Shown piece by piece: positions 30,486-40,725 of a stretch of 64,000 nucleotides of DNA (positions are counted from its first letter, which is position 1; every line of letters starts with the position of its first letter). Source of the DNA: Jannaschia seohaensis (GTDB taxonomy: Bacteria; Pseudomonadota; Alphaproteobacteria; Rhodobacterales; Rhodobacteraceae); NCBI RefSeq assembly GCF_900116765.1, contig NZ_UETC01000013.1:1-64000 (forward strand), written 5' to 3'. The notes beneath the pieces are model-generated. The model had not been told where the DNA came from, did no database searches, and was given only the letters and a program-made list of their open reading frames with translations. The position numbers and the translations under genes are program-made.

Positions 30486-33400
30486 ATGACCAGACTGGAA
30501 GACATCAGGAATGGGGCCTCAGTCGCGGGGCTCGTTCCGAACCAAACGGTCGAAGCGATCTCTGTGGAATGGATTGGAGATCAGGCGATCAATGTCGTGT
30601 ACCGGGCATCGAACGGCTCTGTCGCGGAAACGACGCTCTACCGCGACGACGAGCACCGGCTCGGTATTGAAAGCCGTGGACGGAAATGGTCGTTCGACGC
30701 TGATGGTGCTCTGCTCCGCTTGGTGACCGAGGCAAACCGCATCAAGCTCGCTCATTTCTTCGACCCCTATTTGGCAATTCACACCAGCCTCGTGGATCCA
30801 TTGCCGCACCAAATATCGGCAGTGTACGGCGAAATGATCCCGCGTCAGCCTCTCAGGTTCCTGCTCGCGGACGATCCCGGCGCGGGAAAAACGATCATGG
30901 CAGGCCTTTTGATCAAGGAATTGATCGCCCGCAGTGATCTCGAGCGCTGTCTCGTGGTGGCACCGGGCAGTCTTGTTGAGCAATGGCAAGATGAACTTGG
31001 CGAGAAGTTCGGACTGGAGTTCGACATCCTGACCCGGGACATGATCGAGAGCTCGAGATCAGGGAACCCGTTCAACGACAACAACCGCCTTATCGCACGC
31101 CTCGACGTGCTGTCGCGTAACGATGAGCTGCAGGAGAAGCTGACGGCGTCTACCGAGTGGGATCTGATAATCGCCGACGAGGCCCACCGCATGTCGGCGA
31201 CCTATTTCGGCAACGAGGTCAAGTATACCAAGCGCTACCAGCTCGGTCAGCTGCTGAGCCGAGCTTGCCGGCACTTCCTGCTGATGTCGGCAACGCCGCA
31301 CAACGGCAAAGAAAAAGACTTCCAACTGTTCATGGCCCTCCTGGACGGAGACCGCTTCGAGGGTCGCTTCCGTGACGGCGTGCATGTCGCTGACGTCGAG
31401 GACATGATGCGGCGCCTGACGAAGGAGGAGCTTCTCCGCTTCGACGGCCGGCCGCTATTTCCCGAGCGGCGCGCCTATACCGTTAAGTACGAACTATCCC
31501 CTCAGGAGGCCGAACTCTACACGGCTGTCACCGAATATGTGCGGAACGAAATGAACCGCGTGCAGCGCTTCGCCGAGGACGATGGCAAGAAACGGAACAA
31601 TGTGGGCTTTGCGCTGCAGATCTTGCAGCGCCGTCTCGCATCCAGCCCGGCAGCCATCTACCAGTCCCTGAAGCGGCGTCGCGAGCGGCTGGAGAATGAG
31701 CTCTCCGAGGCGAAGCTCGCCACAAGAAGCACCCCATCGTCCTTGAGCAAAACGTCTATCAGCGACGAGATGCTCAGAAACCTCGATGAGTACGGCCAGG
31801 ATGAAATCGATGATCTTGAGGAACTGATCTCCACCGGGGCCACCACGGCAGAAACCGTGGAGCAACTGGAACTGGAAGTTCAGACACTCAGGGGACTTGA
31901 GAGCAAGGCGCTTGAAGTCCTTCGCTCAGGCAAGGACACGAAATGGCAGCAGCTCGATCGGATTCTCGATGACGATTTGATGCTCGATCCGGACGGCTAT
32001 CGACGCAAGCTGATCATCTTCACGGAGCCCAAAGACACTCTCGAATACCTACGTGAAAAGGTCGTTGCACGGCTCGGAAGGCCCGATGCAGTGGACGTCA
32101 TCCACGGTGGCGTATCCCGTGAAGAGAGGCGGAAGGTCGTAGAGCGGTTTATGCAGGATCGCGATCTCCTGGTGTTGATCGCAAACGATGCGGCCGGCGA
32201 AGGCGTGAACCTTCAGCGCGGCCATCTCATGGTCAACTATGATCTGCCGTGGAATCCCAACAAGATCGAACAACGGTTTGGACGCATCCACCGGATCGGA
32301 CAGACAGAAGTCTGCCATCTGTGGAATCTGGTGGCGAAGGAAACTCGCGAAGGGGAAGTCTACGCGCGGCTTTTGGAAAAGCTAGAGGCCGCCCGCGAAG
32401 CTCTCGGCGGGCGCGTGTATGATGTTCTCGGGGAACTCTTCGAAGAGCGGGCGCTAAGGGACCTTCTCTTCGAGGCAATTCAGTATGGCGAGCAGGACGA
32501 GGTGAAGGCGCGCCTCTTCCAGACAGTGGATGGCGCGGTCGACCAAAGCCACCTCCTCCACCTTTTGCAGAAGCGGCAGCTCACCAGCGACACCATGCCG
32601 GAGGCGCGGGTTCAGGAGTTGCGGCTCGAGATGGAGCGAGCCGAAGCTCAGCGCCTGCAGCCCCATCACATCCAGAGCTTCTTCGTCGAGGCATTCAAGC
32701 GGCTCGGCGGCCAGATCAAGCGCCGGGAAGAAGGACGGTGGGAAATCACCCATGTTCCGCTCAGCGTGCGGGAGCGTGACCGCCAAATCGGCTCCGGTGC
32801 GCCACTTCAGAAGAAGTACGAGCGCATCTGCTTCGAAAAGGGCAAGATCAACCAGCAGCCTGTCGCGGCCTTCGTCTACCCCGGGCACCCACTGCTCGAG
32901 GCTGTCATTAGCCTTGTGCGCGAGCAGAACGACCACCTGATGAAACAAGGGGCTGTCCTGGTCGATGACACCGACGACGGCACCGACGTTTCCGCCCTGT
33001 TCCTGCTCGAACACAGCGTGCAAGACGGCCGCCCGACCAGCTCCGGCAACGCCAACGTGATTTCGCAGAAGCTGCAGTTCGCCGCGATCGACGAGGCAGG
33101 CAACGTGACCAACGCCGGGATCGCGCCCCACCTCAACCTTCGTCCGGCAACACCGGAGGAAATCGGCGGTGTCGAGGATCTACTGAACGCCGACTGGCTG
33201 CGGGGCGACCTCGAGAAGAAGGTCGTTCAGTTCGCCACTGTCGAACTCGCCCAAGGTCACGTTGCGGAAGTGCGCGGGCGCCGACTGCCCGAGATCGACA
33301 AGGTCGAGCAGGAGGTGAAGGCCCGCCTCAAGAAAGAGATCAACTACTGGGACTCGCGCGCGTTCGAACTGAAGGAACAAGAAAAGGCCGGCAAGAAGAC

Positions 33401-40300: not shown

Positions 40301-40725
40301 TTGACAGCGATTCTGTCATTGTGCGGCCGGATATCGCAGAAGCATATCGGCCAAAACCTGCAGCAGCTCCGGAGCAGAGTGGGCTCGGCTCCGGATCAGA
40401 TACTGCGACGGCTAGTTCTGACGAAGGCAGCAGTGCGCCAGCTGGTGCGGCAGCAGGTCATCCCGGCAGTGGATCCGAGCCAGAGGCAGAGACAAAACCG
40501 AAGCGATTTGTCGGTACCGTCATGCTATCGTCAGACCGACCGGCACGCGATATGCATCAGATTGTCGAAGCAATCGTTGAACAGCTCACGACGCTTCCCG
40601 GAGCGGAGGTTTCGCTGCGGCTGGAGATCGATGCCGAGGTCACGTCCGGACTTGATCGCGCGAAGGTACGAACGCTCTTGGAGAACGCGAGCACTCTGGG
40701 TTTCATCGATAAGGTGGTGAACTGA
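37396..40725 (+). CDS. DUF499-type ATPase with N-terminal Swt1-like HEPN motif
   Basis: 1109 aa. The N-terminal 140 residues form a helical domain with DVRNKLAHDGKF (R93, H98), the R-x4-H motif of HEPN/Swt1-type domains. The ATPase domain follows: Walker A TNFGGGKTHSMLALYHM near residue 245 and Walker B PSLILIDEWVAYLRQI near 358. A long middle region resembles DUF499 proteins. Near 1000-1030 lies a low-complexity Ala/Gly/Ser linker, and a final alpha/beta module VGTVMLSSDRPARDMHQI follows. It is probably the regulatory or sensing ATPase of the cassette. Its stop TGA shares a base with the ATG of a 28-codon stub. Confidence 0.88.
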   Translation: MAKSARQTVFEGMELLPKGLQPFVMQRLEVALGKGWPQDVISRFPEWRPEQNGKFSLDTQKLLKIMERLWNDAFRDVLDRTHRSIVNELVDVRNKLAHDGKFSYDDAERALDSMRRLLEAVSAGQSAEEIGKMRDTILRTKYRELARSEERKSNVSTISTETVSGLLPWRDVVEPHQDVATGEFQQAEFAADLAKVHNGSAPYEYSDPREFFSRTYLTDGLSRLLEGAAKRLSGQSGDPVVELQTNFGGGKTHSMLALYHMVGKTPVHDLPGLDQLLSEKGLSVPDTISRAVLVGTSRGPQDVIRLDGGQEIRTTWGELAWQLGGQDAFDMIAENDARGIAPGSNLLEAIFKKCAPSLILIDEWVAYLRQIYKVEGLPSGSFDANLSFVQALTEAVKASPQTLLVASLPASQIEVGGEGGQEALARLKQTFSRVESSWRPASQEESYEIVRRRLFKEIPGDKYMHRDNTLKQFAKLYRESPNDFPQGCADEDYRRKLEKAYPIHPDLFDHLYTAWGSLDKFQRTRGVLRLMAQVIHELWMSGDPSVMIMPGSVAISSARVEPELLHYLPNAWQGIIAGDVDGMNSTPYKIDQSAPNLNRYSATRRVARAVFVATAPTEGQQNRGIDDKRINLGVVQPGEKVAIFGDALRRLTNQAKFMHSDLGRYWYSMSASLNRVASDRAGQLEEALVLVEIDKALTGYINGLADRGHFDAVQVAPDSSSEVPDEAGGIRAVVLGVAHPHTGRDGSDAMVEVKDILLQRGATPRVYRNTLVFLSADSRQLENLKEAMRSSLAWDGIVRDADTGRLDLKTSDIALAKDKAKESRETVHTRLKETWCYLIYPYQDTAQSDVELTSARIPAQDGVLGRASKKLVSDEALLPEIGPERLNRELEKYIWSGKKHLHLKDLWEYLNRYTYLPRLKNRDALTKSVQSAVSGMLPGPFAYAERWDEASQSYAGLAIEKSSNALVSIDSDSVIVRPDIAEAYRPKPAAAPEQSGLGSGSDTATASSDEGSSAPAGAAAGHPGSGSEPEAETKPKRFVGTVMLSSDRPARDMHQIVEAIVEQLTTLPGAEVSLRLEIDAEVTSGLDRAKVRTLLENASTLGFIDKVVN

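What the first reader, a model, noticed from the sequence alone, without database searches (positions are those of the whole stretch)
30486..40725. Four-gene helicase-HEPN-methylase-ATPase cassette, a probable anti-phage system
Seen: a 1169-aa SNF2/DEAH helicase ending in a D...ExK-bearing DUF3883-type domain, a 197-aa HEPN-motif protein, a 928-aa DUF1156-type methylase with SAM and DPPY motifs, and a 1109-aa DUF499-type ATPase. All lie on the plus strand with overlaps or short gaps, at the end of a mobile island. Known: helicase/methylase/ATPase combinations of this kind are predicted defence loci (called Hma in one catalogue, from memory) and recall DISARM and Pgl. Inference: the methylase marks self, the helicase and ATPase sense or translocate on foreign DNA, and HEPN and DUF3883 domains supply nucleases. 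The free-standing HEPN gene between helicase and methylase may define a distinct variant.
Basis: partly seen in the sequence, partly recalled or inferred. Interest (0 to 1): 0.85.

Follow-up and report, generated by a model that had tools for sequence, protein, structure and literature searches.

The report
Hma defence operon with swapped parts
A known type of bacterial anti-virus gene cluster (helicase, DNA methylase, ATPase) carries an extra probable RNA-cutting gene, and the stretch holding that gene and the methylase's specificity half looks like a replaceable cartridge, so one machine may be re-aimed at different DNA sequences.

Summary
The four genes are real and at the stated coordinates. 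The 197-aa gene is a probable, unproven HEPN RNase. It does not define a conserved variant: a relative sits in 1 of 121 fetched loci. It occupies an insertion slot between helicase and methylase already known to hold embedded defences (HECs).

What I did not find in the papers I could read is a second exchange. A relative from another genus keeps 96% (helicase) and 94% (methylase 3' end plus ATPase) DNA identity, but between window 33968 and 36602 has different cargo and a different methylase N-terminal two-thirds. Another relative carries this methylase half at 96% protein identity on a more distant backbone, without the HEPN gene. Of 24 pairs (five clusters) with near-identical helicase and ATPase, 23 differ in the methylase half.

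Most likely mechanism (inferred): restriction-modification-like defence in which HmaB sets specificity, helicase-nuclease and ATPase restrict, and HEPN RNases are backups. New member of a known kind, with natural specificity chimeras. No function was tested.

The parts
29711..29800 (+). tRNA-Ser (GGA); left boundary of the island that carries the operon
   Evidence: ARAGORN; three congener regions align only up to 29801-29802; all 20 genomes of the genus (own included) have a match over the tRNA and no listed congener match reaches past query position 326 (window 29825)
30486..33995 (+). HmaA: SNF2-family helicase with C-terminal NOV_C (DUF3883) PD-(D/E)XK-type domain at residues 1047-1128
   Evidence: PADLOC HmaA 1589.6 bits over 1-1167; Pfam; 96.1% DNA identity to L159 up to 33967
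33968..36602 (+). Exchanged block: last 28 nt of hmaA, cargo gene and hmaB codons 1-669; unrelated to the same stretch in the near-identical relative L159
   Evidence: blastn identity of 96.1% stops at 33967 and of 94.1% starts at 36603, only 60 bp (34595-34654, 90%) between them; same-codon use 20-42% in hmaB codons 21-669 against 87-92% beyond 701; GC 45-56% in 300-nt steps against 55-71% around
33992..34585 (+). Embedded cargo gene, 197 aa, probable HEPN RNase (RNFAAH at 141-146)
   Evidence: Motif invariant in 4 aligned relatives except one F-to-Y (L022) and F-to-H in L186; relative L039 has a sub-threshold HEPN_Cthe2314 match, E 0.002; all-helical AlphaFold2 model, pLDDT 86
34596..37382 (+). 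HmaB: DUF1156 adenine-type DNA methylase; codons 1-~669 in the exchanged block, ~690-928 belong to the backbone
   Evidence: PADLOC HmaB 1037.3 bits; DUF1156; motifs; chimera evidence
37396..40725 (+). HmaC: DUF499 AAA+ ATPase with N-terminal HEPN_Swt1 domain (residues 12-122)
   Evidence: PADLOC HmaC 957.8 bits over 166-1103; Pfam DUF499 and HEPN_Swt1
51074..52396 (-). Tyrosine integrase (Arm-DNA-bind_3, Phage_int_M, Phage_integrase), probable island integrase; link to the operon not shown
   Evidence: Pfam

Best explanation
The locus is an Hma (Type-1 DUF499-centred BREX-related) defence operon on a tRNA-Ser island, with an embedded probable HEPN RNase gene. It most likely works like a restriction-modification system. 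HmaB methylates adenines at a site chosen by its nested target-recognition region. HmaC (AAA+) assembles a scanning complex with HmaA. When HmaB's site is unmodified, the HmaA helicase-nuclease attacks the DNA. The HEPN domain of HmaC and the free-standing HEPN protein act as backup RNases that stop translation when restriction fails or is inhibited, as PrrC does beside EcoprrI. The operon is built around two replaceable parts: a cargo slot between hmaA and hmaB, and the first ~670 codons of hmaB. Because near-identical HmaA and HmaC occur with unrelated HmaB halves, HmaB is probably the specificity factor for restriction as well as for modification. Shown here by sequence: membership in Hma, the slot, the exchange and its boundaries. 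Inferred: all activities, the specificity role, and the backup role.
For: Hma models best for all three core genes, adjacent and in one direction; catalytic motifs intact (and IEVK in the NOV_C region). L159 (G721, other genus): 96.1% DNA over 30483-33967 and 94.1% over 36603-40709, unrelated in between, different 135-aa cargo with an ASCH match. L162 (G590): HmaB residues 21-665 96% identical, next best of 13 matching genomes 53% or less, but HmaA 88% and HmaC 84% and no cargo. Trees of 30 rows: methylase half groups window with L162 and rejects window+L159 (p-AU 6.7e-6); HmaC groups window with L159 and rejects window+L162 (p-AU 1.9e-4). Generality: of 2926 pairs of 77 loci, 24 have HmaA >=90% and HmaC >=88%; 23 of the 24 have the methylase half under 75%, and the right break falls at codons 610-690 in 20 of 24. 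Correlation of pairwise identity with HmaA: HmaC 0.97, HmaB 700-928 0.93, HmaB 1-665 0.61, HmaB 230-520 0.40. Slot: gap over 300 bp between A and B in 58 of 85 loci, between B and C in 15 of 76.
Against: No experiment. No DNA methylation data. The HEPN assignment of the 197-aa protein is weak: no Pfam match of its own, profile comparison with the HmaC HEPN not significant (prob 0.3%), no PDB fold match at E<=0.001, and the five AlphaFold2 models ranged from pLDDT 86 to 50. The 24 pairs fall into only five clusters and one pair (L059/L042) keeps the same methylase half. Loci were chosen by similarity to HmaB, so the sample is not even. HmaC also has regions that could read DNA sequence (RRM and wHTH domains, PMC12839542, sections 28-29), so the specificity inference is not forced.
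Confidence: 0.72

Rival explanations
1. The methylase half is not exchanged but diverges very fast under diversifying selection, so that operons of common descent look different there.
For: The region 230-520 is the least conserved part in nearly all comparisons, as expected of a target-recognition region under selection.
Against: Identity drops and recovers within a short stretch (96% to ~48% and ~63% to ~89-96% in 150-nt steps); codons at identical residues agree in only 20-42% inside and 79-92% in most of the flanks, far beyond what selection on the protein alone gives; the same half recurs at 96% on another backbone; the trees conflict.
Confidence: 0.06
2. The 197-aa protein is a small DNA- or protein-binding regulator or adaptor of the methylase, not an RNase.
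For: No confident HEPN match for the protein itself; all-alpha model without a confident PDB match; its relatives on two Streptomyces plasmids stand alone, outside Hma loci.
Against: RN-x3-H kept as the likely active-site motif in all five sequences seen; the relative L039 gives HEPN_Cthe2314 at E 0.002 over the motif and C-terminal helices; most slot neighbours in other loci are defence-type genes (13 of 20 scanned match PADLOC).
Confidence: 0.25
3. The 197-aa gene is an independent stand-alone defence that merely hitch-hikes in the slot and does not interact with Hma.
For: Two Streptomyces plasmid relatives and two viral-contig relatives lie outside Hma loci as far as annotated or matched; the same methylase half occurs without it in L162; slot cargo includes complete known systems such as Septu-like pairs and a DRT2 reverse transcriptase.
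Against: 4-nt overlap with the helicase stop and 10 nt to hmaB imply shared expression; L039 keeps the relative directly in front of hmaB.
Confidence: 0.4

Closest known systems
Hma (helicase, methylase, ATPase), PADLOC; Payne et al. 2021, PMC8565338 (passages read)
   Same: HmaA, HmaB and HmaC all match their Hma models best and lie together.
   Different: PADLOC's HmaC model covers only residues 166-1103; here a HEPN_Swt1 domain precedes it. One extra gene lies between A and B. The 2021 paper calls HmaB an m5c methyltransferase; the DPPY motif here points to an adenine/cytosine amino-methylase.
Type-1 DUF499-centred BREX-related (BR) system; PMC12839542 (sections 29 and 35 part 1, and passages, read)
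   Same: DUF499 ATPase with N-terminal HEPN, DUF1156 methylase, Snf2 helicase with C-terminal nuclease domain; standalone HEPN genes in or beside such loci are reported there.
   Different: I saw no mention there of an exchange of the methylase half between near-identical backbones (the word 'exchange' does not occur).
Hma-embedded candidates (HECs), Payne et al. 2024 preprint (not held; known to me only through passages of PMC12111858 and PMC12988326)
   Same: Single genes placed between Hma genes; several reported to protect against phages.
   Different: The 197-aa family matches no PADLOC 2.0.0 model, HEC models included.
PrrC beside the type IC system EcoprrI (PMC12707154, passages read)
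   Same: Works-like model: a HEPN RNase gene (PMC3710099, passages, groups PrrC with HEPN) embedded in a restriction locus as a guard.
   Different: PrrC has an ABC-type ATPase part (PMC2610378, abstract in listing); this protein is 197 aa without one. No homology claimed.
BREX PglX/BrxX (PMC11341690, title, abstract start and passages)
   Same: Works-like model: a methylase that is also the specificity factor.
   Different: Different system; no PglZ/BrxC set was found among the ORFs scanned here.

Membership tests
Hma (PADLOC) | HmaA, HmaB and HmaC present, adjacent, same strand | tested here: met
   1589.6, 1037.3 and 957.8 bits; order A-B-C on +
Type-1 DUF499-centred BREX-related system | DUF499 ATPase, often with N-terminal HEPN | tested here: met
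   DUF499 and HEPN_Swt1 above Pfam cut-offs
Type-1 DUF499-centred BREX-related system | DUF1156 methylase and Snf2 helicase with C-terminal PD-(D/E)XK nuclease | tested here: met
   DUF1156 79.5 bits; NOV_C 71.1 bits at 1047-1128. That NOV_C/DUF3883 is a nuclease is from PMC3710099 (passages), not tested
Type-1 DUF499-centred BREX-related system | N-terminal TUDOR domain of the helicase, inactive REase, C-terminal RRM of DUF499 | not tested
   No fold of these proteins was predicted
Hma-embedded candidate | Gene lies between Hma genes in the same operon | tested here: met
   33992-34585 between HmaA and HmaB, 4-nt overlap with hmaA
Hma-embedded candidate | Gives phage resistance on its own | not testable with these tools
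   Needs plaque assays
HEPN superfamily (197-aa protein) | Rx4-6H motif in an all-helical domain with detectable profile similarity | tested here: inconclusive
   Motif and helices present; own Pfam match none; L039 relative HEPN_Cthe2314 18.6 bits, below the 27.1 cut-off; HmaC-HEPN profile 0.3%; HEPN toxin 7ae6 only at rank 25, E 2.1
DISARM | DrmD at the curated cut-off with DrmA/B and a Drm methylase | tested here: not met
   DrmD 376.5 bits against cut-off 610; no Drm protein is the best PADLOC hit of any of the five ORFs scanned
Anti-phage DUF1156/DUF499/phospholipase-D set (NF042962-NF042964) | Equivalog cut-offs of 1200, 1000 and 1100 bits | tested here: not met
   179.6, 118.8 and 165 bits
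BREX | PglZ/BrxZ and BrxC | tested here: not met
   Among the ORFs scanned with PADLOC (5, 10) none matched PglZ or BrxC models in the rows shown (best 25 of 56 shown for HmaA); not every ORF of the window was scanned

The most novel reading that the evidence does not exclude
Hma is a chassis with two cartridges. Near-constant HmaA, HmaC and the last ~230 residues of HmaB accept, by recombination at fixed borders, (1) a defence or sensor gene between hmaA and hmaB and (2) a new specificity half of HmaB. The whole restriction machine is thereby re-aimed, making HmaB the single specificity subunit for both self-marking and attack. The window is a fresh double recombinant.
Probability: 0.55. Interest if true: 0.65.

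Novelty: new member of a known kind. Interest (0 to 1): 0.45.

Why it matters
Hma/Type-1 BR systems are widespread (PADLOC: 26 phyla, PMC8565338) yet how they choose targets is unknown. Natural chimeras with near-identical motor parts and unrelated methylase halves are ready-made tests of which protein sets the target. They also suggest a way for hosts to outrun phages that have lost or modified one recognition site. The embedded 197-aa family adds a candidate defence gene absent from the PADLOC 2.0.0 models.

Tried and rejected
Rejected: a conserved four-gene variant defined by the HEPN gene. Rejected: DISARM and the phospholipase-D/DUF1156/DUF499 set. Rejected: plain fast divergence of the methylase half. 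Considered: hmaB codons 1-20 as a third recombination anchor between the two slots. They share 12 of 18 codons with L159 and 11 of 19 with L161, more than the 20-42% (L159) or 20-44% (L161) in codons 21-669, but this stretch is also strongly conserved as protein, so I do not claim it.

Led nowhere or weak: the single-protein scans for the 197-aa protein in genome contigs and viral contigs found nothing, yet a 60% relative (L039) lies in genome contigs and was met later by way of HmaB, so those negatives say little; phages tblastn no match. Fold searches gave no confident match: PDB, viral (best E 0.053, an unnamed phage protein). Profile comparison with the HmaC HEPN failed. The island's right end was not found: no second copy of the tRNA end in C23, one 2-mismatch site on another contig; flanks of two congeners gave only short weak matches or none. 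Promoter and terminator scans were no better than chance.

85 of 121 loci had A and B measurable; L063 and L118 are the same sequence, both counted. In one search, L037, L118 and four remote loci were dropped by name and 77 of the remaining 130 rows passed length and score limits. Slot cargo was scanned for 20 chosen proteins only.
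Full report
Observation. PADLOC gives HmaA 1589.6 bits, HmaB 1037.3 and HmaC 957.8, and nothing for the 197-aa protein or the small ORF at 40759-41238. Pfam adds NOV_C at the helicase C terminus, DUF1156 on the methylase, and DUF499 plus HEPN_Swt1 on the ATPase. Its fusion to DUF499, and the helicase with DUF3883 beside it, were described in 2013 (PMC3710099, passages).

What is known. 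Hma was named as a predicted system in 2021 (PMC8565338, passages). A 2026 paper calls the same systems Type-1 DUF499-centred BREX-related systems, reports the HEPN-fused ATPase in 1370 of 2446 taxa, cites one experimental study of the helicase-nuclease (Liu et al., Halomonas meridiana; not held, seen only as cited), and reports nucleases including standalone HEPN in or beside such loci (PMC12839542, sections 29 and 35 part 1 and passages). Genes lying between Hma genes are known as HECs, some with shown anti-phage activity. I have this from passages of PMC12111858 and PMC12988326; the preprint itself is not held. So the helicase-methylase slot is prior art, and I count the present gene as one more embedded candidate.

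The 197-aa gene. Relatives found: L039 (a cyanobacterial MAG, 60% identity, directly in front of hmaB in an Hma locus), two Streptomyces plasmids (38 and 36% by tblastn, annotated neighbours not Hma) and two viral contigs (36%, same score, probably the same sequence). It is rare: own genome only among 289 genomes of the class and 398 of the phylum, 1 of 121 fetched loci, 0 of 14 more. Scan negatives are weak, since one search missed L039. HEPN evidence: RNFAAH in the window and L039, with RN-x-AAH kept in all five; L039 matches HEPN_Cthe2314 at E 0.002, below the curated cut-off; the best AlphaFold2 model is all-helical with pLDDT 86 and pTM 0.85 from three sequences, but the five models range down to 50. 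Against: no own Pfam match, no PDB fold match at E<=0.001 with HEPN toxin 7ae6 only at rank 25 and E 2.1, and no profile similarity to the HmaC HEPN. I hold HEPN as probable.

The slot. Of 85 loci with both genes measurable, A and B are within 100 bp in 24, 100-300 bp in 3, and over 300 bp apart in 58; B and C are within 100 bp in 59 of 76 and over 300 bp in 15. Slot genes fall into many families. Of 20 chosen, 13 match PADLOC models at E<=0.001, some only in part: Septu PtuB, DRT2, HEC-07 (twice), HEC-09, PDC-S01, PDC-M11B, TmtA-like, GmrSD/HEC-05-like, a DUF3644 protein and others. The seven without a match include the ASCH-domain cargo of L159, an HSP70 and a NUDIX protein. Cargo genes are stitched in: at 28 of 57 loci an ORF of 60 aa or more starts on the helicase TGA stop with a 4-nt overlap. 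Control: 25 of the 45 loci with a TGA stop have such an ORF of 130 aa or more, against 2.4% of 818 NTGA sites inside the helicase genes and 24% of 1166 inside the slots.

The methylase half. GC falls to 45-56% (300-nt steps) from about 34000 to 36700 and rises to 68% beyond; third-position GC is 0.76 in hmaA, 0.61 in the cargo, 0.50 in hmaB codons 1-669, 0.87 in the rest of hmaB and 0.74 in hmaC. Among 390 genomes of the order, 15 have HmaC at E<=1e-100. The closest, L159 (G721, other genus), is 96.1% identical in DNA over 30483-33967 and 94.1% over 36603-40709; between these only 60 bp match by blastn (34595-34654, 90%), and its cargo is an unrelated 135-aa gene. L160 (G595; same sequence region as L037, Sediminimonas qiaohouensis) and L161 (G707) show the same right border with other cargo. 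L162 (G590) is the reverse: its HmaB half is 96% identical in protein while the next best of the 13 matching genomes reaches 53% or less, HmaA is 88% and HmaC 84%, and it has no cargo. At identical residues, codons agree in 20-42% of cases in codons 21-669 against L159, 87-92% in codons 701-928, 90% in most of hmaA (65-70% in its last 41 codons) and 79-91% in hmaC. Trees conflict accordingly (quick method, LG+G4, 30 chosen rows; the pairs tested were suggested by the identity tables; the HmaC tree carries long-branch warnings for other rows).

Generality. In 77 loci with all three genes, pairwise identity of HmaA tracks HmaC (r 0.97) and HmaB 700-928 (0.93) but not HmaB 1-665 (0.61) or 230-520 (0.40). 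Of 24 pairs with HmaA >=90% and HmaC >=88%, in five clusters, 23 have the half under 75%; the exception is L059/L042 (89%). The right break lies at codons 610-690 in 20 of 24. The two parts move separately: 8 of the 24 pairs share slot homology, and L059/L026 keep their cargo at 90% while the methylase half is at 69%; the window and L162 share the half but not the cargo. That residues 230-520 hold the target-recognition region is an assumption from the position between the two methylase motifs and from PMC12839542.

Mechanism. Shown: composition, motifs, exchange. From the family papers: methylase marks self, DUF499 ATPase scans, helicase-nuclease degrades, HEPN as last resort. Inferred here: since HmaA and HmaC stay 99% identical while the methylase half is replaced, restriction should take its target from HmaB, or a swap would leave the host attacking itself or not defended. 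This resembles BREX PglX as methylase and specificity factor. The free HEPN protein most resembles PrrC in arrangement: an RNase gene inside a restriction locus, possibly freed when phages block restriction. That is a model, not a membership claim.

Literature status of the exchange. I did not find it described. Searches. Eight held papers contain DUF1156, DUF499 or COG1743; I read passages or sections of three of them and saw the other five as listings only. The 2024 preprint could hold it.

Verdict. A real, intact member of a known defence family with one more embedded candidate gene and, as the most interesting point, clear natural specificity chimeras.

Noticed in passing
L107 14317-16554, L124 8430-10763, L129 14088-15077, L111 19399-22287: These Hma loci show a second HmaB-like ORF (311-651 bits) besides the main one; tandem methylases could be a two-specificity form. 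L129's may be a broken or split gene.
   Followed up: no
L037 / L160 hmaB (L160 7581-10385, flipped): hmaB is interrupted by one in-frame TAG stop, so this close relative may be inactive; described only.
   Followed up: no
L117 (IMG/VR contig, 12570 bp held): A contig in the viral collection carries an HmaC 97% (1-166) and 92% (167 on) identical to the window's, suggesting that phages or phage-like islands carry the operon, or that an island was miscalled as viral.
   Followed up: no
L042 5776-10008 and relatives (L023, L026, L046, L086, L129): A ~1400-aa slot gene with Sacsin/HATPase-type N terminus matching PADLOC TmtA in part recurs in several loci.
   Followed up: partly
window 45486-50281: Large minus-strand proteins with DUF7178 and ART-PolyVal domains, typical of polyvalent proteins of mobile elements (recalled), between the operon and the integrase; no PADLOC match.
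   Followed up: no
window 30308-30485 and beyond 40725: L159's similarity to the window is confined to the operon (30483-40709); flanks and promoter region are not shared, so the operon itself, not the island, is what the two genomes share.
   Followed up: partly
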